A DNA stretch of 64,000 bases from Zygnema cylindricum (Eukaryota > Streptophyta > Zygnematophyceae > Zygnematales > Zygnemataceae), in contig JBBHKE010001023.1 of the NCBI GenBank assembly GCA_037447655.1, positions 62,001-126,000 of the forward strand. The letters are read 5' to 3'. Below, piece after piece: positions 35,692 to 64,000 of the stretch. The notes beneath the pieces are model-generated. The model made no database searches and had not been told where the DNA came from. It worked only from the letters and a program-made list of their open reading frames with translations. A program made the position numbers and the translations under genes. The number at the start of each line of letters is the position of its first letter. Within the stretch, counting starts at the first letter, position 1.

Positions 35692-36371
35692 ATGTATGAT
35701 CCGTACGGACAAGCGCAGCCAGCGCAGCTAGCGCAGCTGCGGATAATATGATTAGGATAGATCTCGAGTAATGATGATTGTACGGTAGTGGTAGCTTAGT
35801 AGTTGCTTAGTGGTAGCTTGGTTTCTGACATACGAAGAGTACGGTGTAAATATTCTGTACAATAGAGGTTTGTCCTTTTGACTAGTTAGGTTATTAGAGT
35901 AGATACAGTACGGCTGGTATGCCTCCGTACTCTGAGTATAACTTGCAGGACTTAGATTTTTTTATGTATCGCAGTCAAGTTTATCAGTGCAATGGCAAAC
36001 TGTTTTCTGCATCTTTGACCTGTTGGTGTGATCACTTTGTTTTGTGCTTTCATGTGAAACTTTGTGGAGGTATTCTTCGATATAGAATATATATGTGTGT
36101 GAATTTTCATTGTATTCCAGTATCTCTGTAAGATTCTGTGAGCAGTCTAAGTAGTTAGTATGTTAAGCTGTCAGGCATTTTTGTGAAACTCTGGAGCCTA
36201 TATCTTCTAGATGCCTTGGTGGATTCAGCTGTAACTTTGGGAGATATTAGTTTATATGGTATACTGGTTATTTCTGCAGTTTGAGTTGATTCTGTTCAGT
36301 TTGGAGTAATCTGTGCTGTCTGAAATACAGCTGGTTTTGAGGTAATCTGTGGGTGTTTCGGTGAGTAATCC

Positions 36372-42800: not shown

Positions 42801-44540
42801 CGTTAGATAACAATTATTTTTATCGTTCACAGTTTGTGAATGTTTGGTAACAATTCCTATAAGCGCTAACAGTTTGTGTAAGTTAGGTATCAATTCCTGA
42901 TATCGTTAACTGTTAGTGTACGTTAGATAACCATTGTTGTTAGCGCTAACTGTTTGTGTAAGTTAGGTAACAATTCTTGTTAGCGCAAATAGTTTGTGTA
43001 ATCTAGGTGACAATTATTGTTATCGCTGACAGTTTGTGTAAGTTAGATAACAATTCGTGTTAACGCTAATTGTTTGTGTAAGCTAGGTAACAATTCTTGT
43101 TATCGCTAACTGTTTCTGTAATTTAGATAACGATTATTTTTTTTGCTAACAGTTTGTGTAAGTTAGGTAACCAATATTTTTAGCGCTAACTGTTTGTGTA
43201 ATTTAGGTAATAATTCTTGTTATCCCTTACTGTTTGTGTAATTTTAGTTACAATTTTTGTTATCGCTAACAGTTTGTGTAAGTTAGGTAACCATTATTGT
43301 TAGCGCTAATAGTTTGTGTATGTTAGATAACAAGCCTTATTATCGCAAACTGTTTGTGTAAGTTAGATAACTTTTCTTGTTATCCCAATTAGTTGCGTAC
43401 TTTAGGTAACAATTTTTGTTATCGCTAACTGTTTGTGTAAGTAAGATAACAATTCTTGTTAGCGGTAACAGTTTGTGTAATTTAGATAACAAGCCTTGTT
43501 ATTGCTAACAGTTTGTGTAAGTTAGGTATCAATTATTGTTAGCGCTTAAAGTTTGTGTAAGTTAGGTAACAATTCCTATCATCTCCAAAAATTTGTGTAA
43601 GTTAGGTAACCATTCTTGTTATCGCCAACAGTTTGTGTAAATTCGTGTTAGCGCCAGCTGTTTGTGTTATTTAGGTAACAATTCTTGTTAGCGCTAACTG
43701 TTTGTGTAATTTAAATAATGAATCTTGTTATCGCTAACAATTTGTGTAAGTTAAGTTACCAATATTGTTAGCGCTACCAGTATGTGTATGTTAGGAAACA
43801 ATTCTTGTTAGCGTACACAATTTGTGTAATTTTCGTAAAAATTCTTGTTATCGCTAATAGTTTATGTAAGTTAGGTAACCATTGATGTTATCGCTATCTG
43901 TTTGTGTAAGTTAGGTTACAATTCTTGTTAGCTCAAACAGTTTGTGTATTTTAGGTAACCATTCTTGTTATCGCTAACAGTTTGTGTAAATTCGTGTTAA
44001 CGCCAGCTGTTTGTGTTATTTAGGTAACATTTCTTGTTAGCGCTAACTGTTTGCGATATTTTGATAACGATAATGGTTATCCCTAACAGTTTGTGTAAGT
44101 TAGGTAACCAATATTGTTAGCGCTAACATTTGTGTAAATTAAGTAACAATTCGTGTTAGCGCTAACTGTTTGTGTAATTTAGGTAAGAATTACTGTTATC
44201 GCTAACTGTTTGTGTAATTTTAGTAACAATTCTTGTTAGCTCTACCAGTTTGTGTATGTTAGATAACAAATGTTATTATCGCAAACTATTTGTGTTATTT
44301 AGATAACATTTATTGTTATCCCTAAAAGTTTGTGAAAGTTAGGTAACTATTCTTGTTATCGCTATCTGTTTGTGTAATTCATGTAACAATTCTTGTTATC
44401 ACTAACTGTTTCTGTACTTTAGGTAACAATTTTTGTTATCGCTAATTTTTTTGTAAGTTAGATAACAATTCCTGGTAGTGTTAACTGTATGTGTAATTTA
44501 GGTAACAATTCTTCTTATCCCTAACTGTTTGTGTAATTTT
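39878..44540. repeat. 40-bp satellite array, block 4
   Basis: About 116 monomers. Compared with blocks 1-3 they show more GTAAGTTAGGTAACCATT and TGTTAGCGCTAACAG variants, so the palindromic form is common. Local higher-order motifs with CCTGATATCGTTAACTG recur at about 42.2-42.9 kb. Confidence 0.97.
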
Positions 44541-45680
44541 TGTGGGTTTTTGGAAACCTTTAGTCCTCTCTGTATCACATTGCTATGCTGCCACGCTGCG
44601 CTGGTTACAACACAGCCATAGCAGCGTGTGTGATAAAGATATTGCGCTACCATGCTGCGCCAGTCACATCGCAGTCATAGCAGCTTGTGTACTAGGTACT
44701 AAGTTTATTGAGATGTACGGATCTAATTGAGTGGCGCCAACAAACGTACGTCAAATGAACGGCGGATCTCGAAGCGATCCGATTTGGAATATTCTTGAAA
44801 GGTTCACTGCAAGTACGAATCATAATGATGAAGAAAGGGATTCAAACTAAAAGTTGCGTGAGAGGCATTGAGTGGAAAGGACGCCACGTGTATGGATTAA
44901 TTTTGGTGAGGTGGCATCAGTTCGTCAATTGATTGTGTGATCGTGTGACATGGCATCAAGTATGCGGAAAAAGGGCTACGGACGGCGGCGCCGTCAGTTT
45001 GTTGAGGGACGCAAAATCGCGTCCGTCACAAGATACTTATTTTGGAAGGTCCCGATTCGATTAACAGAATTAGTAAGACTTGTAAATATGTAACGATGTT
45101 TTGTCCTGTGCATTAATTATTAATGTAGGTTTTAGGTACACTCACATTAATAGAGGTAGTTGATTGATTACGAACGGCTGGTATGCCTCCGTACAGTTAG
45201 TAGTAAGCTGTAGTGTATATTTGTAGGACTTAGTCATTTTTGACTTAGGAACCTTTTGGACAGAAACTGTTTCTGCTCCTTTTTGGGATTTTCATCTGAG
45301 AATTGCTCTCAGTTTTATTGGCAGAATTATCTGAAATTTTGCATGTGTCTTCTTCCTTTTATTGGCAATATTGTGGCGAATTTGCAGATCTAGTGTGTGT
45401 CTGGTTTGCTCGGGGCTTCATTGTGAAGTTGGTCATATTTATCAAAGTTCTGGCAGGCTGTTTTTCTGCAACTTTGACTGAGTGTTGTGATTATTCGGTT
45501 TGGTATTTTTGTATGAAAATTGGTGGAAATACTAAGTGGCCTACGAAATCTCTGGTTGAGTAGTTTCAGCTGGGTTTGGTTATCTTGTAGAATTCTGAGT
45601 GGAATCAAAGGAGGCTGTTTTGGGGTAGTCTGTGGTGCTTCCGAGGGTACATTCATGGCTGAAAATGGCTGTGAACAACA
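44541..45680 (+). mobile_element. 5' LTR of the complete gag-only element
   Basis: It starts TGTGGGTTTTTGGAAACC and ends TGTGAACAACA. It shares blocks with the other LTR family (GGCGGATC.CGAAGCGATCCGA; CGGCTGGTATGCCTCCGTAC), showing common origin, but its left boundary differs. Confidence 0.92.
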
Positions 45681-46930
45681 GGTTATGGGCCCACGCCCAT
45701 GGTTACCCATATTGGATGAATCAACCTTACCCATACTTGATGGATCTAAATATTATTATTGGAGGAGTTTGATGGAGAGCTACTTAAGTCGAGGAAGCTA
45801 ATGGATGTGGTGGACGAACGTGTGCTGAATCATCGGTTGGATGGGAGGAGAAGAACAATGAGTGTTTGCTGATTGTCAAGCTATCCTTGAACGAGGAACT
45901 TGTAATGACTTACCTTGGTCTGGAAAGTGCAGCTGAATTATGGAAGAGCTTAGAACGTGTATATCAAAAGACTTATGTGTATCATTGGATGAGTAATGTT
46001 ACAAAAATAGTTGAGTATAAGTATGATGGAGGTAGTATGTTGGATTATTGTATTGGCATACAAATATTGTTCGCGGAAAATGATATTGCAAGAGGAAACT
46101 TTACAAATACTCAAAAGGCTTACATGTTAATGAAAGGATTACCTAAGGAATATAGGTGTGTTGTAGATAGATTAAGACAAGTTGATAAAAGGGATTGGAA
46201 CGTACCTTTAGCAGTCAGGTGTGTTTTAGAGGAAGAGGCTAATAACGAGGCTCTAAAGATTAAGGGGAATTTTCAAGGTGTCAGATCACAGTTTCAAAGA
46301 AATAAGAAAAGTTGTAAGGTAGAAAATTGTTTTTACTGTAATGTTGTAGGGCATACTTTCAAGGTATGTCCGCTATATAAAAGTGCATGTGTCGCAGGAA
46401 CCTTCAGGAATGGATGGGATGATAATCGAGTTCGACCTCCTAAACGAAGGGCCACACTTCCCGTGGACGAATTTGTTTACTTGCCGATTGTTACTCTTCG
46501 AGATATGAAACATGAGGGAGGAAAAGAAAAATTTGATGTCACCGGAAATGGAGTGGAGAAAAGGGTGACAGAAAAAGAGTCAGTTTTTGTCACTTTTACA
46601 AACAACAGATTGGTGAGTGATGAAAATGTGCAAGAGGAAGAGGTTGTTGAAGTAAGAATATTAGGAGGAAGTGAAGGGCATTTGGAAGTTGAAATTGAAA
46701 ATAATTTGCAGAAGGAGATTAATTCACCTAGAGAGGGAGAGAGGAAAAGGGTTCAGAAAATCGGAGTACGTGAAGAAGTTCATAATACGGAAGAAGAAAA
46801 TAAAATTGCGAAAATGGGAAAAACATCAAAATTCAGTAAGAAAACGAAGAAAGGAAGTAGAATTAAAAGGATGAATCGTAGAAGAAAACGTAGTCCGAAA
46901 GTGGTCAAAAGAAGACGGCGTGAAAAGTAA
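45655..46930 (+). pseudogene. Copia-type gag, two small frameshifts
   Basis: The ATG is within the LTR end, and the protein starts MAENGCEQQVMGPRPWLPIL, reading through the primer-binding site. The frame shifts near 45,785 and again near 45,815, then stays open to the stop at 46,928-46,930. AAELWKSLERVYQKTYVYHW and FAENDIARGNFTNTQ match Copia gag. The zinc knuckle CFYCNVVGHTFKVC is at 46,328-46,369. The tail is rich in Lys, Arg and Glu and ends KRRRREK. Relative to the sister copy it carries an inserted tandem piece near residue 20 (PILDESTLPILDGS). Confidence 0.87.
45681..45694 (+). other. Primer-binding site, initiator tRNA-Met anticodon arm
   Basis: GGTTATGGGCCCAC abuts the LTR. It is the same 14-base complement to the initiator tRNA-Met anticodon stem-loop as in the 35.7-39.9 kb element, so the site is conserved across two diverged families. 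Confidence 0.8.
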
Positions 46931-47140
46931 ATTTACAGAAGTGACTACCATTAACATTCGATAATATTGGTAGAATTTTAAAAATTTAGTTTTCTATTGT
47001 TCTAAAATTGACTGAAAAATAGAGTTTTATTTTGAAAACTTAGAAAGACGCAGTGGAAGCGATGGTGTGTCTAGGAAGGACGAATTTTGGAAGAGATGGC
47101 CGGAGGGAGTTCGAGCAGTGGAGACGTTAAACACGTCTTG

Positions 47141-47230
47141 TTGCTATGCTGCTATATTGCTATGCTGCTAAGTTGCTATGTTGCTATGCTGCTAAGTTGC
47201 TATGCTGCTATGTTGCTATGCTGCTATGCC
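47141..47230. repeat. Low-complexity GCTATGCTGCTAAGTT repeats
   Basis: Short units of TTGCTATGCTGCTA repeat about seven times in the internal tail of the gag-only element. Related GCTATGCTGC motifs also occur near the LTR start. Confidence 0.7.
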
Positions 47231-47582
47231 TTTATCTGACATCGCAAGCATAGCAGCTACCATGCTTTTATATTATTTCGGATGTACCAAACTAAATTTT
47301 CGAGGGAGTGTTGTTTCGAAAATTCAGTTCAGTGAGTGCGTGTCGTTTCGTGCATACAAAATGTTTCGTGGGTACAGTACGAGATTCTAATGATATCTTG
47401 ATTTAATGTGGAGGTTCGAACGGATCTGCAAATTGGGGGAGCAATCGTACTAATTGCTTGGGATGTACGGAGTTATTTGAATCAGTGGTAACGTTAGCCG
47501 AAGCGGTGGTGACGGTTGAACAAAAGGAGAGAATGGAGAAATGTAAACTTAGTGGCTGAGAGAGTCTAAAGGTTTGGGGGAG

Positions 47583-48721
47583 TGTGGGTTTTCGGAAACC
47601 TTTAGTCCTCTCTGTATCACATTGCTATGCTGCAATGCTGCGCTGGTTACTTCGCAGCCATAGCAGCGTGTGTGATAAAGATATTGCGCTGCCATGTTGC
47701 GCCAGTCACATCGCAGTCATAGCAACTTGTGTACTAGGTACTAAGTGTATTGAGATGTACGGATCTAATTGAGTGGCGCCAACAAACGTAAGTCAAATGA
47801 ACGGCGGATCGCGAAGCGATCCGATTTGGAATATTGTTGAAAGGTACACTGCAAGTACGAATCATAATGATGACGAAAGGGATTCAAACTGAAAGTTGCG
47901 TGAGAGGCATTGAGTGGAAAGGACGCCACGTGTATGGATTAATTTTGGTGAGGTGGCATCAGTTCGTGAAGTGATTGTGTGACCGTGTGACATGACATCA
48001 AGTATGCGGAAAAAGGGCTACGGACGGCGGCGCCGTCAGTTTGGTGAGGGACGCGAAATCGCGTCCGTCACAAGATACTTATTTTGGACGGTCCCGATTC
48101 GATTGACGGAATTAGTAAGACTTGTAAATATTTAACGATGTTTTGTCCTGTGTATTAATTATTAATGTAGGTTTTAGGTACACTCACATTAATAGAGGTA
48201 GTTGATTGATTACGAACGGCTGGTATGCCTCCGTACAGTTAGTAGTAAGCTGTAGTGTATATTTGTAGGACTTAGTCATTTTTGACTTAGGAACCTTTTG
48301 GACAGAAACTGTTTCTGCTCCTTTTTGGGATTTTCATCTGAGAATTGCTCTCAGTTTTATTGGCAGGATTATCTGAAATTTTGCATGTGTGTTCCTCCTT
48401 TTATTGGCAATATTGTGGCGAATTTGCAGATCTAGTGTGGGTCTGGTTTGCTTGGGGCTTCATTGTGAAGTTGGTCATATTTATCAAAGTTATGGCGAGC
48501 TGTTTTTCTGCAACTTTGACTGAGTGTTGTGATTATTCAGTTTGATATTTTTGTATGAAAATTGGTAGGAATAATAAGTGTCTACGAAATATTTGGTTGA
48601 GTAATTTCAGCTGGGTTTGGTTATCCTGTAGAATTATGAGTGGAATCAAAAGAGGCTGTTTTGGGGTAGTCTATAATGCTTCCGAGGGTACATTCATGGC
48701 TGAAAATGACTATGAACAACA
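47583..48721 (+). mobile_element. 3' LTR of the complete gag-only element
   Basis: It starts TGTGGGTTTTCGGAAACC after the polypurine tract and ends TATGAACAACA, then the target duplication ATTTT. It aligns over its full length with the 5' LTR. Confidence 0.92.
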
Positions 48722-50802
48722 ATTTTAGTAACAATTCTTATTATTGCTAACAGTTTGTGTAAGTTAGGTAACCATTCTTGTTAGCGCTTATAGTTTGTGT
48801 ATGTTAGATAACAAGCCTTATTATCGCAAACTGTTTGTGTAAGTTAGATAATTTTTCCTGTTATCCCTAAAAGTTGTGTACTTTAGGTAACAATGTTTGT
48901 TATCGGTAACTGTTTGTGTAAGTTAGATAACAACTCCTGTTAGCGCTAATAGTTTTTTTAAGTTAGGTAAAGTTCCTGTTAGCGCTAATAGTTTCTCTAA
49001 GTTTGGTAGCCATTCGTGTTATCGCCAACAATATGTGTAAGTTAGGTAACAATTCATGTTAGCGCTAACAGTTTGTGTAAGTTAGATAACAATTCCTGTT
49101 ATCGCTAACAATTTGTGTAAGTAAGGTAACAATTCCTTTTAGCTTAAACAGTTTGTGTAATTTAGATAACAATTCCTGTAATTGCTAACTGTTTATGTAA
49201 TTTAGGTAACAATTTGTGTTAGCGCTAACTCTTTGTGTAATTTAGGTAACAATTCCTGTTTTCCCTAAACTGTTTGTGTAGTTCTAGTAACAATTTTAGT
49301 TATCGCTAACAGTTTGTGTAAGTTAGGTAACCATTCTTGTTAGCGCTAACAGTTTGTGTATGTTAGATAACAAGCCTTATTATCGCAAATTGTTTGTGTA
49401 AGTTAGATAACTTTTCCTGTTATCCCTAACAGTTTCTGTAATTTAGGTAACAATTCATGTCATCGCTAACTGTTTGTGTAATTTTAGTAACAATTCTTGT
49501 TATTGCAAACAACTTGTGTAAGTTAGGTAACAATTCTTGTTAGCGCTAACCGTTTGTGTATGTTAGGTAACAAGCCTTATTTTCGCAAACTGTTTGTGTA
49601 AGTTAGATAACAATTCTCTTTAACGCTAACAATTTGTTTAAGTTCGGTTAAGTTCCTGTTAGCGCTAACAGTTTCTCTAAGTTAGGTAATAATTCCTGTT
49701 ATCGCCAACAGTATGTGTAAGTTAGGTAACAATTCTTGTTACCGCTAACAGTTTGTGTGACTTACGTAACAATTACTGTTATCGCTAACATTTTGTGTAA
49801 TTTAGGTAACCATTATGTTTAGCGCTAACAGTTATGTATGTTAGATAACAAGTCTTATTATCACAAATTGTTTCTGTAAGTTAGATAACATTTCTTGTTA
49901 TCCCTAAAAGTTTGTGTAAGTTAGGTAACAATTCCTCTTATCGCTAATTGTTTGTGTAATTTATGTAAAAATTATTGTTATCCCTAACTGTTTGTGTTAT
50001 TTTAGTAACAATTCTAGTTATCGCTAATAGTTTGTGTAAGTTAAGTAACCATTCTTGTTAGCGCTAACAGTTTGTGTATGTTAGATAACAAGCCTTATTA
50101 TCGCAAATTGTTTGTGTAAGTTAGATAACATTTCCGGTTATCCCTAATAGTTTGTGTTTGTTAGGTAACAATTCCTGTCATCGCTAACTGTTTGTTTAAT
50201 TTATGTAACAATTCTTGTTATCTCTAAATGTTTGTGTTATTTTAGTAACAATTCTTGTTATTGCGAACAGTTTGTGTAAGTTAGGTCACCATTCTTGTTA
50301 GCGGTAACAGTTTGTGTATGTTAGATAACAAGCCTTATTATCGCAAACTGTTTGTGTAATTTAGATAACAATTCTTGTTAGTGCTAACAGTTTGTTTAAG
50401 TTAGGTAAAGTTCGTGTTAGCGCTAACAGTTTCTCTAAGTTAGGTAACAAATCCAGTTATATCCAACAGCATGTGTAAGTTAGGTAACAATTCATGTTAT
50501 CTCTATTTGTTTGTGTAAGTTACATAACAATTCCTGTTATCGCTAACAATTTGTGTAAGTTAGGTAACAATTAGTGTTAGCATAAACAATTTGTGTAATC
50601 TAGATAACAATTCCTGTTATCGCTAACTGTTTATGTAATTTAGGTAACAATTCTTGTTACCGCTAACAGTTTGTGTGAGTAACGTAACAATTCCTGTTAT
50701 CGCTAACATTTTGTGTAATTTAGGTAACCATTCTGTTTAGTGCTAATAGTTGTGTATGTTAGATAACAAGCCTTATTATCGCAAATTGTTTCTATAAGTT
50801 AG
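48722..50802. repeat. 40-bp satellite array, block 5
   Basis: About 52 monomers. A distinctive pair of variants, AACCATTCTTGTTAGCGC then GATAACAAGCCTTATTATCG, recurs at about 48,811, 49,369, 50,088 and 50,328 at multiples of 40 bases (14, 18 and 6 monomers apart), indicating higher-order organisation. Confidence 0.96.
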
Positions 50803-51050: not shown

Positions 51051-53231
51051 GTCAACAGAAGGGAGGATTGTACCGTACTTAATTATAATATCCGGATTTT
51101 TCGTCGACGACACATTTCTGAATTTACGTCGGTACAAATAAGCTTACCGTACCATAGATATCTTCCTTGATTTCCGCCGACGGTGGATTCGATTATTTTA
51201 CGTCGACCTTACGACTTACACTGCCCGGTATTCCCGCGACTACATATTGGACCGTACCTTTGGTCTTACAGTACCTACTTTCATTTCCCGAAATCCCGGC
51301 GACGATAATTTTTAATCGTTTCGCGTGAAGTAGCATCCTGGCCGTCGATGCTGATTATGTAATTTTCTCACTTTGCATCTGGACCGTCGACGCAAATGAC
51401 AGACAAATTGGCTGTCAGCTTTGATGAAGCGACGTCATTGGACTATTTTAAGTTGTGAACCATGTGGAGGTTCATGCATTCACATGTAGATAGGAAGGGT
51501 TTTAATTAGTAGGTTATAGATTCTGTAACATAGGGAATAGGATTTCGGCCTCCTATTGGCTGAATCCAAACTAGACGCAAATACTTACATAACACGCTGT
51601 AATCTGATTGGCCTATTTTTGCTAGGTGTAGTTTTTGTTACTTAGTTCATTTCGGATCATTTCCTGCACACAATTTTCAAGTGCAGGAATTATTCATTTT
51701 ATTTATTTGTTTTCAATATTGAGGATTTTCTGCAGCCATCTTTTTATTATGTAAAATTGTCCGGACAGCTTAGAGGCGATTTTTTGCCTTTGCGTGAAGC
51801 GTCTAGTTTCCTATTACATTATCAATATCTTGTAAAGCCTTACATATTAATCTATACGGCTTCGGCCAAGACCTACATGGTTTCCTTTCACTTTTCTTGT
51901 CCTTTTAAGTGGATTTCGACCGCGATCTTACAACACGAACTTCTTTCCCCGGCTGTGGCTTAATTTTAATTAGTGTGGAAGTTGCATGTTGGGATTATTG
52001 ATTCGTTGTTTTATTTCTTGAGATTGTGTGTTTATTTCTATTTGGCTTTTGTGTATCTTTTGAGTTTGGTTATCTCAAACCTCATAAGTGTCGGGCAAAT
52101 TGTCATTTTCAGTTTTTATTTATCTTTCTCGGTTGTTTATGTTTTGATTCATTTTGTTTAAGTATAAATTCAGATTATTCTCGATAAAGATAACTCCTGC
52201 AAGGAATATAAGTAGACCGTGGGGCCTAGTGGTCATCCATCGGCTTAGTATTCCTGCACTTGAAAATTGTCTTATTTTCTTTTCTCGCTTGTTTGTTTTT
52301 ATTTCAATTTCGGTTTTCTTTTAATTTAAAGAAAAAAAACAAAAATATCTCAAAAAATATATATATATATCAAAAATATATATTTATAGATACATTTCTA
52401 CAAATATCTATAACTAGCTTTACATTTATAGTTACCATTTGCTTGTTAGTTGACGTTTTATCTTATTGGCCAATTTTCGGCCAACGATATACTACACTAA
52501 CTTAAGTATTTGGTTTTTGTTTTCCCCATTTTCTTTGTTATATATCTTGAGCATCGTTTGCTCACATTGAGACATACATCACTTAGGGGTGGAGTTAGTG
52601 AAGCGGATCCATTCTTGGGAGCTCTGCAAAACTTTGGTTGTAGCGAACAACCGCAGTTCACCCTTGGCAGTCACCAGATTGCTAAGAGTGTTATGTAAGT
52701 ATCACGATGCCTTGCGGGTAAAGGCGCGTGTTAAGGTAGTCGGTTGATCGTATAGAGGGATCGTGTTTGGAGTGGATTACTGTTAATCCACTTGTATTGA
52801 GCATTGCATTTGTCCAGCTTTCCTTGCTTGCTATCTGGCCCTGAGTGGCCTCGGCTGAGTTTGCTTTGCCCGGAGTGGGATTTCTTCCATAGATCTTGCC
52901 GTTGGAGGCATTGGTTAGCACTTTTGTGGATTGTGCGGATTTAAATCTGCACTTGGGAGTGCTTGGATAGTAAGTTATTTGCCTTTATATATCTGGCCCT
53001 TTGGCCTTGTCCCCTTGTCTGTAGGGTAGAAGGTTTTGGTAATACGGCTTCTGATAGAACTGGCCATCAAGGCCCTGTTAGAGATTGATTGGCTGACTAG
53101 ACAAAAGAGTGGTGTGGCTTGGCATTTGAAGCATATCGGATAGATCTGTTTTGTTATCTGGTCATCATTTGGTGTTATCATTTTTATGCCCACCGATTAG
53201 GATAATCTTGATTATCCTGTCGGAACCACTC
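51051..53231 (+). promoter_or_regulatory. Putative 5' LTR/leader region of the Gypsy element, ends unresolved
   Basis: There is no gene here. CCTATTGGCTGA (about 51,551) and TGATTGGCC (about 51,607) resemble CCAAT boxes, as expected of a U3 promoter. T-rich sequence follows to about 52,550. I could not find a matching copy at the 3' end, nor a convincing primer-binding site, so LTR boundaries are unknown. Confidence 0.35.
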
Positions 53232-55182
53232 GATCGTCGGCCTCGTTTAGGCCCACGGAATCGGGACCATCAGATTTATCTAGTTCTTTGGACCATCCTT
53301 CCCTAAATATCTCGGGTCAAATTTCCCCTTCGGTTTGATCAACTCTCACCTCAGTATCTTCCTTATCATCTGTCTCTTCCACATTTTTCAAAGAGGAATC
53401 TGACCACGATACCCTTGACGGGTCGGATTCCGATTCATTATCTTTTTGGTTTCCACAAATTACCAATCCAGTTTTATCCTTAAGCATTACATTATTGGAA
53501 ATGGCTTCCATATCCGAGGGAGGGGGGCGCCTTCATTTATGTTTTTTAGGATTGAAGGACACCATGACTTTATCGAATTTTTGAATGCTATTCGATACCG
53601 AAATGCGTGATCTTGCATATCGTTACCAAGATCGGTTCTACCTACGGGTTGCTTTCTCTGTATTAGGCCGTTACCTTCGCGGTTCAGCCTTTACTCTTTA
53701 TTCTCGCAAGTATGATTCGGTACTTGCAATGACAGAGTTTTCTCCGGCTTTCACTGGGAGTCTTGCTATTATAGGACAACCAGAGATTCCATACCAACCG
53801 GCTATCCCGTAAGTCCTCGATCTCAACGGGGATGTTATGATAGCAGCAGTTGCGGAAATACCGCAACAATTTGCTATAGCCGCACGTGCTGGAATCCCAA
53901 CACGACCAGCGATGACGATCCCTATACTTGATCCGCTCTCAGTCATGTTTGAAATGTTGTAAGCGGAATACTGTATGCAAAACCCTGACCAAGTTCGTGA
54001 GTTAATGAACTTCAAACGGAAGTCAGGAGAGACTGCTTCTGCCATGCGTGCTTGCATGGAAGCTATTCGTGAAGCATTGCCGGACTTAATGTTGGATGCT
54101 GAAGCTGTCCAAAAATTTGTAGGACAGTTTCCGAGTCAGTCTAAGAAATTTATTCAGAGTCCCTTGACTCAAACGTACGGCTTGAAGTTCACTTTCGACC
54201 AAGCCGCCAGGATGCCGTGGAATACGAAATGCAAAATTGTTGGTGGGAAGCTTATGACCGTCCTAAAGCGGTCTCGAAAGAACCGATTGTTCCACCATGG
54301 AACAATCCTCGTCCTAACAACTGGCCCCCTAAAGTCTCGGCCATGGGAACCCCACCTGTTGCTCCTGGAAACCGATTATGTTTTCGATGCGGGAAGACGG
54401 GGCATGATGCTAGAATGTGTCCAGACAAAACAATTACCTGTACACATTGCAAACAAACCGGACACTACGTCCAACGTTGTCATATAAAGAACCGAGAATT
54501 TTCCTATCACAACCAAATTAAAAATGGTGGCATTCTCGCTCGATCCGCAAAACTGGTTCAACCGGTTAAAGAACGGGAGAAGGACACCACTCCACCTAAG
54601 GTATCTCGAAGAGAGAGAGAGCGTTTAGAAATGCAAGAGCAAATGGCGGCTATGATGAAGGAACAATTCGCAGCCTTCATGACTCAAATGAAACCACAAT
54701 TTACTGGCATGGCTCGTACGGTTGTACACATGCACACGTTAGCAGGTCGAATCTTACGAGATTCCACCATCCAACAACGAGAGGTTACGTTCGACAAAGG
54801 TTCAACTAATCATAGCCATGACGGTAAAACTCCTAACACACGCATTCATTTGTCATTCACTAAAGAGCTTTCTCCTCCCTTACCCGAAACCGCGTCAGCC
54901 ATCGCTGCTAAAGCTCTCAACATAGTGGATCGAACTATAAACAAGGCACACCGCGTAAAAGAACGCTTGTGCATTCTATCCACTAAGATTTCACATTCAC
55001 CAAAAATCTCCGCTATCTCCTTTACGTCCGATAGCTCAACTGCAGCTGCCGCTTTATTAGCACTTCAGCTGCACAGAAATCTGGCTGCTATTCAGCCTAT
55101 TTCCATAGAGGAGCCAAATTTCCATGATCCTCACATCATATTTTTCTATAATTGGAAGGGCGCATTGTTGACAATGGTATAG
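53232..55182 (+). pseudogene. Gypsy gag with two CCHC zinc knuckles, broken
   Basis: This is a structural capsid/nucleocapsid region. A Ser/Thr-rich head (to about 53,580) leads to RYQDRFYLRVAFSVLGRYL, AFTLYSRKYDS and QNPDQVRELMNFKRKSGETA, typical of a capsid domain. Stops occur at 53,582-53,584, 53,810-53,812 and 53,960-53,962, and a frameshift near 54,210. The knuckles CFRCGKTGHDARMC (54,379-54,420) and CTHCKQTGHYVQRC (54,439-54,480) follow the CX2CX4HX4C rule. A coiled-coil-like, Met/Gln-rich stretch (RRERERLEMQEQMAAMMKEQ) comes next. The start codon was not determined. Confidence 0.85.
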
Positions 55183-55475
55183 CCCCTTCTCGCCCCTCAT
55201 AGATACGGGTGCAAAGCCGATGATATTGGGCTCTAGCTTTGCACTCAAGCTTGGTCTAACTCCGGACAAGCTTTAGGCCACTTCTACTCAGTTGTTAACA
55301 TAAGCGGGTACAACCGAGCCAGTCCTAGGAATCACAAATGAACCGCACGTTTTCAGGTTCTAGAGCGGAACGGCCACAGACTTTGCTGAGATCTCGGTTC
55401 ACGCTTTGGTCACTAAATGTAGTGACTATGAATGCCTAGTGGGACAAGACGTATATTACGCGTAGGGGGTGGAGT
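55183..55475 (+). pseudogene. Retropepsin-type aspartic protease remnant
   Basis: PLIDTGAKPMILGSSFAL contains the catalytic D-T-G-A box (Asp codon at 55,202). YECLVGQDVYY about 75 codons later matches the second conserved strand of Gypsy proteases. Several stops interrupt it. It would cleave the gag-pol polyprotein in an active element. Confidence 0.75.
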
Positions 55476-55563
55476 TGACATGCATGATTAGACATTTTAT
55501 TATAGGCCCACTAGCTTCCCGTAACGCAAAATCTGCATTCCGTTAATTTCCGCTAGGAAGCCC

Positions 55564-56835
55564 ATGCCTATTATGGCAAATTCAGCCACATCCATACCTG
55601 CATTTTCAGGGAATTCGGTGGGGGCCGAAATATTTCATTCATTGTCAGCAGAAGAAATTCTACCCGATAGTTCTTACTTACCAGAAATTTTCACTGACCC
55701 AGGTTTTCTTATAGATACGAGGGAATTTGACCGAATCTATAACCAAACCTTGTCAATTCCACTTTCTCCAGTCTCTCCCACAACCCCAGTCCCTACAGAC
55801 TCTTCTGGGTTTCTTCCCATTAATTGGAATCCGGTCCAATAGAAACCTCACCCAAATGGATTGGTGATTTTGGACCTCTTCGGTGGAATAGGCACTTCTC
55901 TTCTTGCATGTTTGCGGAATGGATTATTAATCCGATTTTATTATTCGGTTGGGATTGATCCATTAGCACGAAAAGCACATTTACTTAATTTTAATTTGCT
56001 GCATTCCCAATACCCGCTTTTGTTACCAAAATTTGCATATGAGCATATGCATACTACCCTCCCACAAGACATTCGGATTGTGGGCAACAATCACTTACTG
56101 GAGATTGGTCGAATTGATCTAGTTTTTGGGCGGATGGGAGTGCCAGGAAATGTCTTGGGCCAGGAAAGGTCCTGGATTAGCCGATCCCCGCACCAAATTA
56201 TTTTTTGAGTTGGTTCGCATCCTGCATTTTCTACAAACTTTAGATTATCCTATGGGGTATATTTTGGAAAATGTCGCAGCCTATAATGATCTAAGACCTA
56301 CAATCTTGGCTGATTATCAATGGATTGAACAATTGATTGGTCCGCCTCTTATTATTGACGCGGCTCGCCATGGTTCACTAGCACACCGGGTTCGCTCCAA
56401 ATGGACGAACCTGATCGATATTGGTAAACTCCGTGAGGCCAACTTCTAAGTTCATCCTCCTCTTACATCCATTCAAGCTGCCCTTCTTCCTTTTCATAGG
56501 GTGCAGCCTTGCATTTAAAAGGATTGTCCCCCAAATTTCAGTGTCAATGTCCTAGGTCAACCGCTCAAGGTGCTTCCTACCTTAGTTTCTTACCCACATT
56601 CCCATGCATTTTCTAATGACGGTCCTGGCATGCTCTGAAACATTCATACCGGTGAGCTTGAAGAGCCTACCTTTACAGAACGAGAACACCTCATGCATTT
56701 TATTCCTGACACTACGGCCGCTATTGGTCTTACAGAACCAAAGATGCACTTTATTAGGTCGTGTCATGGACCCTTAGTCTTTGTCTTTTGTTTTAGGTCT
56801 TGGGTTTGCACCTGGTCGCTACTCTCAAGCACATC
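55564..56835 (+). pseudogene. C5-cytosine DNA methyltransferase domain (DNMT3/DRM-like) inside the Gypsy pol
   Basis: In an intact copy this would transfer a methyl group from SAM to cytosine C5. After an N-terminal linker (from 55,564, with TAG at 55,840-55,842) come motif I VILDLFGGIGTSLL (FGGIGT at 55,879-55,896), VGIDPLARKAH, and IDLVFG leading to motif IV. The catalytic Cys codon of CQEMSWARKGPG is at 56,141. KLFFELVRIL, motif VI ENV in YILENVAAYNDLRP (56,267-56,275), motif VIII AHRVRSKWTN (56,381-56,410) and motif X-like QRCTLLGR (56,739-56,762) follow. A frameshift just before motif IV, a later one and TAG at 56,775 break it. Glu replaces the usual Pro before the catalytic Cys. The length and motif order resemble DNMT3. 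Confidence 0.88.
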
Positions 56836-58590
56836 CGTCTCAAGCAACTGGGGGGTGGAATGCATCAAGAAAATCTTTCCGTCTCACTCTCCAAGGGACC
56901 AAATTTCAATTTTTCTTCTTTCGTTCTCCAATTCCACCAGTCCACGAGATCTCTATCTACAATTTCCATAACCCTAGCCATATGTCTTGGTCTATCCCCG
57001 CATACACGGCTGTCCAGTCTACAAGTCCCATGCATATTCCGCCCACTCCTCATTGGAGTGCTGCTTTCCCAACACACAGCTGGAATCATTCAGTTAATTG
57101 CCTTAAACAGACACCGGTAGCTTACGAGTTAGGTCAAACGCTTATCGCAGATGAGCAGTTGGCCTTTGCACAAGCCATGGAAGCTATGACAACCGAAAAT
57201 CCCGATGCTCTTAAATGGAAATTCGGCACCAATCTAACCAAAGTCGAACAAGAGTTAGTGAATGACGTAGTTTTACAAAATGTCGACACCTTTGCCTTTT
57301 CTATGAACGATTTGGGTCATCACACGGCTTATAAGATGTCGATAGATCTCGAAGATGATCGCCCGATATTTAAACCGAAACATCATTTGTCAGAAACTGA
57401 ATGGAAAATGGTAGACAAGCGATGTGCTGAACTAGAGGAAGCTGGCCTAATCTATCGGTCAGACTCCACATTTGCAGCTCCCTCAGTTATGCCTCGGAAA
57501 AAGGATTTTGAGGGTAATTTTATTGAACCTCGAATGTGTGGTGATTATCGTGAACTAAATGCTAGAACGGTTCAAGATCGTCATCCCATGCCTCTTGCCG
57601 AAGAAATATTTGATCAGGTAGGCGGGGCGAAGTATTTTAGTATCCTTCACCTCCGTCAAGGATTCAATCAAATTGAGATAGAGGAAAAAGACCGGCATAA
57701 AACTGCCTTTTGGGGTAGTAACGGCTGATGGGAATGGGTCGTAATGCCGTTCGGACTGAAAAATGCCCCCGCGGTATTTCAAAAAGTCATGGACTTAGTT
57801 CTCGGAGGTTGTAAGTTTGCTAGGGTGTAACATCGATGACCTCATCATTGCCTCCGCTACTATCGAAGAGCACGCCGCTCACATCGAATGGGTATTGACT
57901 GAATTAAAAAGGTTGGATTAAAGTCTCATCAGCGAAATGCACCTTTGGAGCCGAGGGAGTGCCTTACCTCGGCCATTTTATCTCGGCTGAGGGGATCACT
58001 CCTCTCGAAGCAAAGGTAGAGGCAATCAGTAAATTGCCTGCTCCCACGGACCTCACTAGTCTGCGAGCCTTTCTCGGACTTGCAAATTATTATCGCAGGT
58101 TTGTATCTAATTTTAGCACCATCGCATCTCCGTTAAACGACCTTCTCAAGAAAGAAGTGGCGTTTACATGGGGTCCCGATCAGATTTCCGCATTTCAAAA
58201 AATAAAAACCGCTTTATCAAGTGCTCCAATTCTCCGTCCTCCCAATCACAAATTCCCTTTTTGTCTTCAAACACACTTTGGGAAACCCGGAATCGCTGCC
58301 ATTTTGACACAAAAAGAGTTGAGCGGAGAGGAATACGTAGTTGCTTACGCGAGTAGAAGCAATAACCGGGCTGAATCAAATTATAGTAGCTACGAAGGAG
58401 AGTGTCTATCCGCGGTTTTGGGAGTCGTTCACTTCCGCCACTATTTGTACGGAAAAACCTTTCACACTCTTAATTGACCATCAGCCACTGTAATGGCTGA
58501 TGACTAATGATGAGCTTTCCCGGAAACTAGCCCGATGGGCTTTAATCTTACAAAAATATGACGTTGAAATCATTCATCGACCCGGTCTGC
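56836..58590 (+). pseudogene. Gypsy reverse transcriptase and RNase H, broken
   Basis: RT begins near 57,370 (DRPIFKPKHHLSETEWKMV) after a linker and includes MCGDYRELNARTVQDRHPMP, FSILHLRQGFNQI, VMPFGLKNAPAVFQ and the IDDLIIAS box. RNase H shows FLGLANYYRRFV (connection), FGKPGIAAILTQK, YEGECLSAV and HRPGLLSLNADGISR. Faults include His for the first catalytic Asp of RT (codon 57,648), a TGA at 57,726, an extra base at the YIDD Tyr codon (near 57,829), His for the first RNase H Asp (codon 58,274), and further frameshifts. The copy cannot be active. Confidence 0.9.
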
Positions 58591-60045
58591 TTAGTCTAAA
58601 TGCGGACGGGATTTCTCGAAATCCTTTGGCTCGAACAACGGATAACCGAGTTCGACAGGATTTCGACGACGATGAGGTTCCGGCTATGTGGGTGGGTTCT
58701 TATCTTACTTATTGTCTGGCCTCTATTCCGAACCCCCGTCCCACCACATATCATTGGCGTGATGGGCCTCTCATTCTTTTTCTATCCTCCCAGACCTTCT
58801 GGTCGGGCACTACCTTTGATGAAGAAGACAGAGTGAAAAAGAGGGCCAAAAGTTACCTTTGGCTCGGGGGATCTTTAGTTCGGTTGTTGGCAAACAGAAG
58901 CCATAGGCACGTTCCACGGCCTACCGAGCGTCTTTCTCTCATTGAGCAGATTCACACTGAGCTTGGTCACTACGGTACCAAGAGAACGTTAAGTCTACTT
59001 CTGGCACGGTATTGGTGGTCACGAATGCAAGTTGATGTCGCTGCTATTCTACACAGGTGTGCCACCTGTGACCGTCTCCGAACTTCTTTCTCTAATCGGC
59101 AGACTACGCTCCAACCTCTACCCATTAGGGGTTTATTCTATCGATGGTCGGTCGATCTGGCCGGACCTTTCCCCATATCACGTAGGGGGAAACAATACAT
59201 CATGATTATGATCAAAAATTTCAGTAAGTGGGTAGAAGTCGTAGCCTTGCCTCACAAGACAGCTAAGTTAACCACTGCAGCTTTTAAGTAAAATGTCCTT
59301 TTGAGATATGCTGCCCCAGCCGAGGTCCTTACGGAGCATGGTACAGAATTTCGGGGAGAATTTCAAGAGATGCTTGATGAGGTTCTCATCGATCATCGTC
59401 GTACTAGCCGAGATCACCCCTAGGTCGATGGCCTGGCTGAACGGGCAGTCCAGACATTTAAGCGTTCCTTGCGTAAGCATTGCTTAGAAAAACACATTTC
59501 GGTTTGGGACGAGTCCCACCGCTACATTACCATGGGATATTGCATGTCAGTTCAGGCTTGTGTCGCGTTTTTACAGCCCGTACTATGTTTTATTTGGGCG
59601 ACAACCGTTGCTCGGTCGCAATATTCAAAAAGTTGCGAGCTTTCCACTTCCACTAATGTTTGACACTATTTTTTTGGAAGAACTCATTCGTTGTGCTTTG
59701 CTTTTTGCCTGTGAAATGCCCATGGCTTTTGATAACCTGCAGATTGCCCAACATCGGGACACACTTCGGTTTGCCACCACTCGAAGCGGCAGTTACAGGC
59801 TGCAACAAAAGCCCTATCGGGTGGGAGATTATGTTTATCTTCGCAGGCAATCTTTTGACACTTTGGACACGGATGTTTCTGCACACATCCTATGTATTAT
59901 CGAGGTGGATCCAAACGGAATGTTGGGATTACAAGGAGCTGACACAAGGACTTTTCGAGAGCACTCTAAGAACTATGCTCCATGTTATCTACCAGATTTG
60001 TCGCAGGATATGGATCCTATGTGGATGCCGATAACGGAGGCAACA
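58591..60045 (+). pseudogene. Gypsy integrase, broken
   Basis: The zinc-binding HHCC part is HTELGHYGTKRTLSLLLARY to CATC. The catalytic core shows WSVDLAGPFP (first Asp), LTEHGTEFRGEF (Glu at codon 59,334 where Asp is expected) and GLAERAVQTFKRSL (catalytic Glu). Stops at 59,289-59,291 (TAA) and 59,421-59,423 (TAG) and a frameshift near 59,500 interrupt it. The C-terminal SH3-like part is PYRVGDYVYLRRQ to NYAPCYLPDL, leading directly into the PHD finger. Confidence 0.88.
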
Positions 60046-60048
60046 ACA

Positions 60049-60225
60049 TGTACCTTTTGTCATCGATCGGACTGGGAAACTACCATGTTACTTTGTGATC
60101 ATTGCAATTTGGGGTTTCACATGGAGTGTTTGGCGCCACCATTGTTAGCCAATCTGGATGGTCACTGGTTATGCCACGGATGTCGCGAGATTCTGGTCGT
60201 GTTGGCCAGCTCCTCTGCCGGCTAA
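60049..60225 (+). pseudogene. PHD finger fused to the integrase C-terminus
   Basis: The pattern is canonical C4HC3: CTFC, 11 residues, CDHC, 4 residues, H, 2 residues, C, then a spacer with Trp two residues before the last CHGC pair. PHD fingers read the histone H3 tail, often the H3K4 state. Here it sits where chromoviruses carry a chromodomain, so it probably steers insertion or retains the element in a chromatin type. The finger itself is unbroken, but the polyprotein upstream is not. Stop at 60,223-60,225. Confidence 0.88.
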
Positions 60226-60230
60226 AGAGC

Positions 60231-60433
60231 TGGGGGGGAGAATAAACCGACCTAACCATAACCAGCTAAGTCGTTGACCTTTCTTTTTATTCCACCTTGC
60301 CTGTTGTTGTATTTATCTATTGTTGCTTTTATGTTTTATTTCATATACGATATCTCACTATCATTTGAGATTAAGTTAAGCACAGCTGATGATATTGCAT
60401 GCATCTTCATGTTATTTGACAACTGCACGACAA
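60231..60433 (+). mobile_element. Polypurine tract and truncated 3' LTR of the Gypsy element
   Basis: TGGGGGGGAG (60,231-60,240) lies six bases after the last stop codon and is a strong polypurine tract. About 190 bases of T-rich sequence follow until satellite restarts at about 60,434. No TG start is evident and no second copy was seen, so the LTR is truncated or decayed. Confidence 0.6.
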
Positions 60434-63400
60434 TAACAATTCCTGTTAGCGTTAATAGTTTGTTTAAGATAGGTAAAGTTCCTATTAGCGCTAACAGTTT
60501 CTATGAGTTAGGTAACAATTTATGTTATCGCCAACAATATGTGTAAGTTAGGTAACAATTCATGTTATCGCTAATTGTTTGTGTAAGTTAGATAACAATT
60601 CCTGTTTTCGCTATCAATTTGTGTAAGTTAGGTAACAATTCCTGTTAGCGCAAATAGTTTGTGTAATTTGGATAACAATTATTGTTTTCGCTAACTGTTT
60701 ATGTAATTTAGGTAACAATTCTTGTTACCCCTAACAATTTTTGTGAGTTACATAACAATTCCTGTTATCGCTAACAGTTTGTGTAATTTAGATAACCATT
60801 CTTGTTAGCGCTAACAGTTTGTGTAAATTAGATAACAATTCCTGTTACCGCTAACTGTTTGTGTAGTTTAGGTAATCATTCTTTCTATACGTAACAGTTT
60901 GTGTAAGTAAGGTAATCATTCTATTTAGCGCTAACATTTTGTGTATGTTAGATAACAAGCCTTATTATCGCTAACTGTTTGTGTAATTTTGATAACAACT
61001 CTTGTTATCGCTAACAATTTGTGTAAGTTAGGTAACAATTTATGTTATCGCTAACAGTTTGTGTAATTTAGGTAACAATTCCTCTTATCGCTAACAGTTT
61101 TTGTAAGCTAGGTAACCATTTTTGTTATCGCTAATAGTTTGTGTAAGTTAGATAATAATTCATGTTAGCGCTAACTATTTCTGTAATTTAGGTTACAATT
61201 CTTGTTATCGCTACCTGTTTATGTAATTTAGGTAACAATTTTTGTTATCGCTAGCAGTTTGTGTAATTTAGATAACAATTCATGTTATCGCTAACAGTTT
61301 GTGTAATTTAAGTAAGAATTCCTGTTATCGCTAACACTTTGTGTAAGTTAGATAATAATTCCTGTTAGCGCAAACAGTTTGTGTAATTTAGATAACAATT
61401 CTTGTTATCGCTAACACTTTGTGTAAGTTAGAAAACAAACCCTGTTTGCGCTAACAGTTTTGTATAAGTTAGGTAACAACTCTTTTTATCGCTAACAATT
61501 TGTGTAAGTTAGGTAACAATTCATGATAGAGCTAACAATTTGTGAAATTTAGGCAACAATTCCTCTTATCTCTAAGTGTTTGTGTAATTTAGGTAACAAT
61601 TCTTGTTAGCGCTAACCGTTTGTGTAAGATAGGTAACAATTCTTGTTATCGCTAACAGTGTGTGTAAGTTAGGTATCCATTCTTGTTAGCGCTAACAGTT
61701 TGTGTAATTTAGATAACAAATCTTGTTATCGCTAACAGTTTGTGTAAGTTAGGTAACAATTCCTGTTATCGCTAACAGTTTGTGTATGTTAGGTAACCAT
61801 TCTTATTAGTATAACTGTTTGTGTAATTTGTAAAACAATTCTTGTTAGCGCTATTTGTTTGTGTAATTTAGATAACGAATCTTGTTATCGCTAACAATTT
61901 TTGTAAGTTACGTAACCAATATTGTTAGCGCTAAGAGTTTGTGTATGTTAGGAAACAATTCGTGTTAGTGCTAACAGTTTGTGGAAGTTAGGTAAAAATT
62001 CCTGATATCGTTTACTGTTTGTGTACGTTAGATAACAATTCTTATTAGCGCTAATTCTTTGTGTAGGTTAGGTAATAATTCCCTTTAGCGCTAACTGTTT
62101 CTGTAATTTTAGTAACAATTCTTGTTATCGCTAACTATTTGTGTATGTTAGATAACCAATATTGTAAGCACTAACAGTTTGTGTAAGTTAGGTAACAAAT
62201 CGTGTTAGCGCTAACTGTTTGTGTAATTTCAGTAACAATTCTTGTTATTGCTAACAGTTTGTGTAAGTTAGGTAACCATTCTTGTTCGCGCTAAGAGTTT
62301 GTGTATGTTAGATAATAAGCCATATTTTCGCAAACTGTTTGTGTAAGTTAGATAACATTTTTATCCCTAACACGCATTTATAACTATTCTTTATTGCTAA
62401 CTGTTTCTGTACTTAAGGTAACAATTTTTGTTATCGCTAACTGTTTTTGTAAGTTAGATAACAATTCATGGTAGCGCTAGCAGTTTGTTTAAGTTAGGTA
62501 AAGTTCCTGTTAGCGCTAACAGTTTCTCTAAGTTAGGTATCAATTCTTGTTATGGCCAACAGTGTGTGTAGTTAGGTAACAGTTCCAGTTAGCACAATTA
62601 GTTTGTGTAATTTCGATAACAATTTGTGTGATCCCTAACTGCTTATGTAATTTAGGTAACAATTCCTATTATTGCTAACTATTTGAGTAATTTAGATAAC
62701 AACTCTTGTTATCGCTAACATTTTGTGTAAGTTAGGTAACAATTATTGTTAGCGCTAACAGTTTGTGTATGTTAGGTAACCATTTTTGTTAGCACTAACA
62801 GTTTGTTTGGGTTACGTAACAATTCTTGTTATCGCTAACTATTTGTGCATCCCTGTTCCTGTTAACGCAAAGAGTTTCTGTAATTCAGGTAACAATTCCT
62901 GATAGCGCAAATACTTTGTGTAATTTAGATTACAATTTTTGATATCTCTAATTGTTTGTGTTGTTTAGGTTACAATTCCTTTTATCGCTAATTGTTTGTG
63001 TAATTTAGGTAACAATTTTTGATATAGCTAACAATTTGTGTAATTTAGGTAACAATTCCTGTTTGCGCTAACCGTTTGTGTAACTTAGGTAACAATTCTT
63101 GTTAGCGCCAACAATTTGTGTACGTTAAATAACAATTCCTGTTAGCGTTAATTGTTTGTGTAATTTAGGTAACAATTCTTGTTATCGCTAACAGTTTGTG
63201 TAAGTTAGATAACAATTCCTTTTAGCGCTATTTTTTTTTGTAATTTAGGTAACAATTCTTGTTATCACTTTCTTTTTGTGTTATTTAGGTAACAATTCTT
63301 GATATCGCTAACAGTTTGTGTAAGTTAGATAACAATTCTTGTTATCGGTAACTGTTTGTGTAAGTTAGATAACAAATCTTGTTAGCGCTAACAGTTTCTC

Positions 63401-64000
63401 TAAGTTAGGTAACAATTCCTATAATCACCAACAGTAACTGTAAGTTAGGTAACAATTTCAGTTATCGCTAATTTTTTTTTTTAAGTGAGGTAACAATTCC
63501 TGTTAGCGCAAATGGTTTGTGTAATTTAGATAACAATTCCTGTTATCGCTAACTGTTTGTGTAATTTAGGTAACAATTATTGTTAGCGCTAATAGTTTGT
63601 GTAATTTAGGTAACCATTCTTATTAGCGCTAAAAGTTTGTGTGAGTTACGTAACAATTCCTGTTATCGCTAACAGTTTGTGTAATTTAGGTAACCATTCT
63701 TGTTAAAGCTAAGAGTTTGTGTAAGTTAGATAATAATTCTTGGTATTGCTAACTCTCTGTGAAAGTTAGGTAACAATTCCTGTTAGCGCAAACAGTTTGT
63801 GTAATTTAGATAACAATTCCTGTTATCGCTAATTGTTTAAGTAATTTAGGTAATAATTCCTGTTAGCGCTAATTGTTTGTGTAATTTAGATAACTACTCT
63901 TGTTATCGCTAACAGTTTGTGTTAGTTAGGTAACAATTATTGTTAGCGCTTATAGTTTGTGTAAGTTAGGTAACCATTCTTGTTACTAACAATTTGGGAG
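60434..64000. repeat. 40-bp satellite array, block 6 (continues beyond window)
   Basis: About 89 monomers, mixing GTTATCGC and GTTAGCGC types. The GATAACAAGCCTTATTATCG variant of block 5 recurs at about 60,951 and 62,307, linking this block to block 5 across the Gypsy insertion. The array reaches the window end. Confidence 0.98.

What the first reader, a model, noticed from the sequence alone, without database searches (positions are those of the whole stretch)
55564..56835. A Ty3/Gypsy retrotransposon that carries its own cytosine DNA methyltransferase between protease and RT
Seen: FGGIGT, CQEMS, ENV and AHRVRSKWTN motifs in the correct order and spacing, lying between the DTGA protease and the RT of one element. 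Known: methyltransferase capture by retrotransposons has been reported in charophytes and dinoflagellates (de Mendoza and colleagues, 2018). Inference: the element may have methylated its own or neighbouring DNA, a rare case of a transposon carrying the mark normally used to silence it. The exact site between protease and RT, the DNMT3-like motif set and the pairing with a PHD finger make this worth phylogenetic placement.
Basis: partly seen in the sequence, partly recalled or inferred. Interest (0 to 1): 0.92.

Follow-up and report, generated by a model that had tools for sequence, protein, structure and literature searches.

The report
Gypsy retrotransposons carrying DNMT3-type methyltransferases
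A decayed jumping gene in a plant-lineage genome belongs to a large family whose members carry, as a built-in and selectively conserved part, a relative of the DNA-methylating enzymes that hosts use to silence jumping genes.

Summary
Window 55855-56807 encodes a C5 cytosine methyltransferase (MT) closest to DNMT3, between protease and reverse transcriptase of a broken Ty3/Gypsy element (about 51073-60432). It is no chance insertion: the genome has at least 123 PF00145 matches; in 20 of 20 loci fetched as 10-kb stretches the protease lies just upstream, in 18 of 20 the RT just downstream. One copy is a single 2395-codon frame between identical 931-bp LTRs. The domain is under purifying selection. 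The kind is known: KnitGypsy-Dnmt3 (de Mendoza 2018). What I did not find in print: relatives fall into two lineages with MT in different slots (PR-MT-RT, partial copies in Closterium; RH-MT-IN, in Haematococcus); the catalytic motif switched between PCQ and ECQ at least four times; subfamily-A copies carry complements between LTR and primer site that suggest Tf1-like self-priming; the dead window copy has a C-to-T excess at CG and CHG, which fits host plant-type methylation; the second lineage often bears another, amino-methyltransferase-like domain. Enzyme activity is inferred, not shown. Host: a streptophyte, species unresolved.

The parts
51073..52251 (+). 5' LTR of the window element (at least this far; homologous to the LTR of the copy at C1915)
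   Evidence: 51073-60432 aligns to L018 at 91%; 51279-52251 aligns to the other LTR of that copy (L031) at 88.5%
51670..51690 (+). arm 1 of a 21-nt perfect complement inside the 5' LTR (putative transcript start, self-primer)
   Evidence: longest inverted pair in 200 shuffles 14 nt; one other 15-nt pair occurs in the same stretch
52250..52270 (+). arm 2, at the end of the 5' LTR: putative self-priming primer binding site
   Evidence: arms differ together between subfamilies (five types)
53504..54208 (+). Gag region, interrupted
   Evidence: tblastn to P0001, 67% identity
54355..54516 (+). Gag CCHC zinc knuckles
   Evidence: PF00098 E=8.5e-6 on the 54145-55182 frame
55178..55533 (+). aspartic protease with DTGA, frameshifted
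   Evidence: tblastn to the protease stretch of P0001, 71%; no Pfam hit of its own
55855..56807 (+). DNMT3-type C5 cytosine methyltransferase domain, ECQ in motif IV; four stops and two frame changes
   Evidence: highest identity 89%, to L018
57492..57985 (+). reverse transcriptase, interrupted
   Evidence: PF00078 E=1.4e-4 on 56778-57728, below its curated cutoff; tblastn 88% and 83%
58169..58504 (+). RNase H
   Evidence: PF17919 E=1.5e-28 on the 57908-58477 frame
58911..59757 (+). integrase: H2C2 zinc domain and core
   Evidence: PF17921 E=1.3e-14; PF00665 E=4e-4, below its cutoff
60049..60189 (+). PHD finger at the C-terminus of the integrase
   Evidence: PF00628 E=4.6e-9
60263..60432 (+). 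3' untranslated part; homology stops here and a 40-bp satellite begins, so the 3' LTR is missing

Best explanation
The window holds a dead, 3'-truncated copy of a Ty3/Gypsy LTR retrotransposon family, probably self-priming, whose polyprotein includes, as a regular domain, a DNMT3-derived C5 cytosine methyltransferase, and whose integrase ends in a PHD finger. Shown: layout, copy number, uninterrupted relatives, DNMT3 kinship by best match, purifying selection, LTR/primer-site complementarity. Inferred: the protease frees the methyltransferase (alone or with RT) in the particle; it adds 5-methylcytosine to the new cDNA or to DNA at the insertion site, while the PHD finger steers the integrase by reading histone H3. 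A copy that arrives already methylated would look like resident silent chromatin, do less damage and persist. Afterwards the host's own CG and CHG methylation takes over and the copy decays, as this one did.
Against: No activity is measured here. Subfamily A has Glu in place of the motif IV proline, which could lower or change activity. In de Mendoza 2018 the KnitGypsy-Dnmt3 domain gave no detectable methylation in yeast (called inconclusive there). The CHG part of the C-to-T signal needs a host enzyme of another kind; in the unpolarised count CG transversions are raised too (p 0.009), and one copy, L011, shows no C-to-T excess. No target-site duplication was seen at the two copies with both LTR ends read. 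MT is less constrained than RT. The transcript start and the PHD's target are unknown. The 14-15-nt complements (L016, L011, L023) are within or close to background on length alone.
Confidence: 0.6

Rival explanations
1. Pseudoenzyme or decoy: the domain no longer methylates but binds SAM, DNA or host DNMT partners (as DNMT3L and DRM3 do, recalled) and so blunts or redirects host silencing.
For: Motif IV proline replaced by Glu in 13 of 15 subfamily-A copies (2 unreadable by my pattern) and Glu in 35 of 72 homologous domains; the motif switched between P and E at least four times and ECQ as one clade is rejected (AU p 0.0053), as if the change were selected.
Against: Catalytic Cys, ENV and RxR stay; sister subfamily B of the same genome has PCQ in 6 of 6; selection continues in A.
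Confidence: 0.2
2. The enzyme works on the element's RNA or RNA:DNA hybrid (as DNMT2 does on tRNA, recalled), for packaging or reverse transcription, not on double-stranded DNA.
For: It travels in the same polyprotein as RT and RNase H, in two different slots, before RT or after RNase H.
Against: Sequence is nearer DNMT3 than DNMT2.
Confidence: 0.1
3. A tool against rivals: the enzyme methylates other elements or DNA viruses in trans, protecting the host cell that the element lives in (proposed for accessory domains by Morozov 2019, PMC6338049, passages read).
For: That paper's argument; the domain is kept in two algal lineages.
Against: No direct evidence here; a benefit in cis explains the fixed fusion better.
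Confidence: 0.06
4. Chance: a host gene fragment landed in one Gypsy copy.
For: The window copy alone is broken.
Against: 20 of 20 loci share the protease-MT junction; relatives with the same order, whole or in part, number 16 of 80 hits, two of them from Closterium.
Confidence: 0.01

Closest known systems
KnitGypsy-Dnmt3 (Klebsormidium nitens; de Mendoza 2018, PMC5890265)
   Same: Ty3/Gypsy LTR element of a streptophyte alga, DNMT3-type methyltransferase inside the Pol polyprotein, many copies, purifying selection.
   Different: The paper's legend gives it a DIRS-like repeat structure; the one copy whose two LTRs I read to both ends has ordinary direct LTRs. The paper's main text has no mention of PHD or protease; motif IV is described only as conserved key residues.
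SymbioDIRS-Dnmt3 and SymbioLINE-Dnmt (Symbiodinium; same paper)
   Same: Retrotransposons with a C5 methyltransferase; two domain orders in SymbioDIRS.
   Different: Tyrosine-recombinase DIRS or LINE elements; here a DDE integrase and LTRs.
Ty3/Gypsy and DIRS elements with DCM or DAM domains in green algae and others (stated in passing by Morozov 2019, PMC6338049)
   Same: Cytosine- or adenine-methylase domains in retrotransposon polyproteins; green algae and charophytes are named.
   Different: The passage gives no layout, motif or tree, so overlap with the T2 lineage found here cannot be judged.
DNMT3A/DNMT3B
   Same: Closest solved sequences and folds; motifs I, IV, VI, VIII.
   Different: 20-27% identity over the fold of P0064; ECQ in place of PCN in subfamily A; the histone-reader-like finger is a PHD on the integrase.
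Tf1/Sushi and Tcn1 self-priming Ty3/Gypsy elements (Neumann 2019, PMC6317226, passages read)
   Same: Primer site complementary to a stretch of the element's own transcript.
   Different: Complement of 14-21 nt here; PHD finger in place of the chromodomain; carries a methyltransferase.

Membership tests
Ty3/Gypsy LTR retrotransposon | PR-RT-RH-IN order with DDE integrase core and H2C2 | tested here: met
   protease by DTGA and by homology (its relative P0004 has a Pfam protease hit above cutoff)
Ty3/Gypsy LTR retrotransposon | RT closest to Ty3 | tested here: met
   PDB 4ol8 (Ty3 RT) E=8.4e-80, best hit
Ty3/Gypsy LTR retrotransposon | direct long terminal repeats | tested here: met
   931 bp, identical, C1344 copy; window copy keeps only the 5' one
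Ty3/Gypsy LTR retrotransposon | target-site duplication | tested here: inconclusive
   none seen at two copies; window copy lacks its 3' end
DNMT3 family | closest to DNMT3 among C5 methyltransferases by sequence | tested here: met
   DNMT3A/B/C ahead of HhaI and DNMT2 for A, and of HhaI, DRM2 and DNMT2 for B; DNMT1 in neither list at E<=1
DNMT3 family | catalytic motif PC(N/Q) with Cys, ENV, RxR | tested here: inconclusive
   Cys, ENV, RxR kept; proline replaced by Glu in subfamily A
DNMT3 family | placement inside a DNMT3 clade of a wide tree | not tested
   only DNMT3A, DNMT1 and HhaI were used as references, all on long branches
KnitGypsy-Dnmt3 | DNMT3-type domain in Gypsy Pol | tested here: met
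KnitGypsy-Dnmt3 | DIRS-like repeat structure (legend of Fig. 4c) | tested here: not met
   ordinary direct LTRs in the copy read to both LTR ends
KnitGypsy-Dnmt3 | sequence kinship with the Klebsormidium elements | not testable with these tools
   no hit named Klebsormidium, but most hits are unnamed and the two searches left lengths of about 981-1316 aa uncovered
Tf1/Sushi-type self-priming element | primer site after the 5' LTR complementary to the element's own transcript start | tested here: inconclusive
   complement seen in 10 of 18 loci; LTR end known independently only for L009 and the window/L018 type; transcript start not known
Chromovirus | chromodomain at the integrase C-terminus | tested here: not met
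   PHD finger there, no chromodomain in the Pfam scan of P0001-P0003
SymbioDIRS-Dnmt3 | tyrosine recombinase | tested here: not met
   rve/DDE integrase instead

The most novel reading that the evidence does not exclude
DNMT3-carrying Gypsy elements are not an isolated Klebsormidium event but an old lineage of green algae and streptophytes, with one enzyme clade sitting in two different slots of the polyprotein, in which the proline next to the catalytic cysteine repeatedly switched to or from glutamate under continuing selection, so that the enzyme's chemistry or target changed; one branch has a second, amino-methyltransferase-like domain, giving a retrotransposon with two kinds of base-methylating enzyme.
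Probability: 0.35. Interest if true: 0.82.

Novelty: new variant of a known kind. Interest (0 to 1): 0.64.

Why it matters
It turns one published oddity into a family that can be studied: over a hundred matches in one genome, young and old copies side by side, two catalytic variants (ECQ, PCQ) in the same host, and two domain orders among relatives. That makes it possible to ask directly why a transposon would carry the mark used to silence it, and whether self-methylation helps a new copy to settle. If ECQ enzymes are active, a rule on C5 methyltransferase active sites needs revising; if not, the elements carry a conserved decoy.

Tried and rejected
Chance insertion of a gene fragment: rejected. 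Viral source of the enzyme: one scan of viral contigs with one MT domain, 13 pattern matches, none a relative; other viral data not searched. Host species: not resolved; no RuBisCO large subunit match in the assembly; rRNA, COX1 and LHC searches did not complete; the one host gene of the window (a CTD small phosphatase) is 95% identical to an unnamed protein, 86% to Chara braunii, 86% to Selaginella (best 120 of 3666 hits listed). Single capture against two captures: the larger MT tree puts the RH-MT-IN lineage (T2) inside the PR-MT-RT one (T1) with modest support (SH-aLRT 88-89), T1 as one clade is not rejected (AU p 0.22), RT trees separate the two: undecided. ECQ as one clade: rejected (AU p 0.0053, 38 chosen rows, long reference branches); the direction of the changes is not resolved. 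CpG depletion of the element loci: no general trend (O/E 0.69-1.04 in six stretches). Literature: no paper on ECQ, on PHD fingers in algal Ty3 elements or on named chlorophyte DNMT elements was seen in the listings (open-access library, mostly titles and abstracts); Morozov 2019 mentions green algae in passing. Self-priming: no complement at the like place in L017, L024, L025 and in the five B loci scanned; their 5' LTRs may lie outside the stretches held. Other 15-nt inverted pairs, elsewhere, occur in L015 and the window.

Full report
1. What is there. The window's finding lies in a decayed Ty3/Gypsy element. tblastn with domains of an uninterrupted relative places Gag at 53504-54208, CCHC at 54355-54516, protease at 55178-55533, methyltransferase (MT) at 55855-56807, RT at 57492-57985, RNase H at 58169-58504, integrase at 58911-59757 and a PHD finger at 60049-60189. 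Pfam agrees for CCHC, MT, RNase H, H2C2 and PHD above its cutoffs and for RT and the integrase core below them. MT is cut into three pieces with four stops. The element runs by homology from 51073 to 60432; it keeps a 5' LTR and lacks the 3' one, where a 40-bp satellite begins.

2. Not a one-off. The genome (352.8 Mb, 2689 contigs) has 123 scored PF00145 matches out of 782 first-look candidates, a lower bound; the broken window copy is not among them. In 20 of 20 the protease lies just upstream of MT, in 18 of 20 the RT just downstream on the same strand (not L025, L027), in 14 of 20 a PHD follows on the same strand. One copy (L009) is a single frame of 2395 codons with MT, RT, RH, IN and PHD by Pfam and a weak CCHC, between LTRs of 931 bp without a difference. 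Two subfamilies live side by side: A (window, L009 and others; 15 copies here with the window) and B (L013 and others; 6 copies).

4. Selection. Between A subfamilies synonymous sites are saturated (NG86 undefined) while MT keeps 75-84% identity; in nearer pairs MT dN/dS is 0.17, 0.33, 0.43 (A) and 0.13, 0.23, 0.25 (B); RT 0.04 and 0.07; RNase H 0.04 and 0.05; protease 0.11-0.60 in four such pairs; integrase 0.11 in one. L022 and L025, in the higher MT values, are partly decayed copies. The domain is kept, less tightly than RT and about as tightly as the protease.

5. Relatives. Two searches of 5.8 billion proteins gave 39 and 41 hits. Of these 80, 16 show the PR-MT-RT order in whole or part (T1), 34 the RT-RH-MT-IN order in whole or part (T2), 30 show too little. 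Named T1 hosts: Closterium NIES-53 (P0080, MT-RT) and NIES-54 (P0083, PR-MT), both partial; named T2 host: Haematococcus lacustris (P0014; P0041 of the same species shows MT alone). Most hits are unnamed. The searches missed proteins of about 981-1316 aa and were seeded with A and B, so the classes are not a census. T1 and T2 are each one side of a branch in RT trees (98/92 and 100/96 with Ty3 and a host Gypsy as outgroup); T2 is one clade in the MT trees (100/99; 100) while T1 is not, yet T1 as one clade is not rejected (AU p 0.22). So capture once with one move, or twice, is open. With only three reference enzymes in the tree, the common origin of all these MT domains is itself not tested.

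6. Motif IV. Of 72 homologous domains long enough, 35 have E, 34 P, 3 no readable motif. At least four changes are needed and a single ECQ clade is rejected (AU p 0.0053, 38 chosen rows). Whether E was gained several times or gained once and lost is not resolved. That the proline is near-universal in C5 methyltransferases is general knowledge, not from a call. A literature search for such a motif listed nothing on it.

7. Priming. Directly after the 5' LTR of L009 and of the window copy lies a stretch whose exact complement (17 and 19 nt in that scan) sits inside the LTR. A scan of 18 loci found such a pair at a like place, starts 466-580 nt apart, in 10 A copies, of five sequence types (L009; L020; L014/L015/L018/window; L011/L019/L023; L016), 14-21 nt, both arms differing together between types. 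The longest pair in 200 shuffles of the window stretch was 14 nt, but real sequence holds stray 15-nt pairs (one each in L015 and the window), so the weight rests on the 16-21-nt pairs and on the recurrence, not on L016, L011 or L023 alone. Eight loci showed none there (L017, L024, L025 and five B loci). This resembles Tf1/Sushi/Tcn1 self-priming (PMC6317226, passages).

8. Methylation of the dead copy. Polarised by L011/L019, C-to-T changes in the window copy are 8.9% at CG (43/482), 10.1% at CHG (46/455), 3.4% at CHH (49/1461); transversions there give p 0.06 and 0.37; in the unpolarised count CG transversions are raised as well (p 0.009). L019 shows the same excess, L015 too but with a raised CG transversion rate, L018 only a trend, L011 none. 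CG plus CHG is the plant pattern (general knowledge), so host methylation is the simplest cause; it says nothing on what the element's own enzyme does.

9. Host. The assembly carries no name. The window's CTD small phosphatase gene, spliced by me, has as its best named hit Chara braunii (86%), after an unnamed protein (95%): a streptophyte.

10. Literature seen. de Mendoza 2018: parts 1-3 of 7 read and passages. Morozov 2019: passages. Neumann 2019: passages. Other papers: search listings only.

Noticed in passing
T2 relatives (P0009-P0040), tail after the PHD finger: 26 T2 proteins have 137-500 aa after the PHD. The last 200 residues of P0013 match 20 of the 25 other tails (phmmer E<1e-3; not P0021, P0026, P0032, P0034, P0035). 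Seven carry a motif-I-like DPxxGxG and four of them also SPPF (P0013, P0033, P0037, P0040), the order of N4/N6 amino-methyltransferases; others look degenerate. Pfam MethyltransfD12 on P0013 E=0.003, below cutoff, none in the other seven proteins scanned; no PDB match. P0008 and P0038 have short tails; the three T1 proteins with a detected PHD end 2-12 residues after it.
   Followed up: partly
window 22890-35690, 39883-44536, 48728-50802, 60434-63985: A long, diverged 40-bp satellite array fills much of the right half of the window and is broken by inserted elements, the Gypsy copy among them; a probe of it matched none of the other loci held then (L001-L028).
   Followed up: partly
window 44541-48721 and about 36369-38006: LTR-like elements with a Gag-like frame (zinc knuckle) and no pol frame of 140 aa or more seen, inside the satellite; the flanking repeats near 44541-45680 and 47583-48721 are 92-95% alike in the compared pieces.
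   Followed up: no
window 13699-15990: Host gene for a CTD small phosphatase-like protein in at least three exons.
   Followed up: partly
P0012 residues 1184-1223; PF01585 also listed for P0036: A G-patch domain between methyltransferase and integrase in P0012; listed for P0036 too, place not checked.
   Followed up: no
window 1-1419: Fragment of a Ty1/copia-like pol (RT with YVDDLLLL) at the left edge, judged by eye.
   Followed up: no
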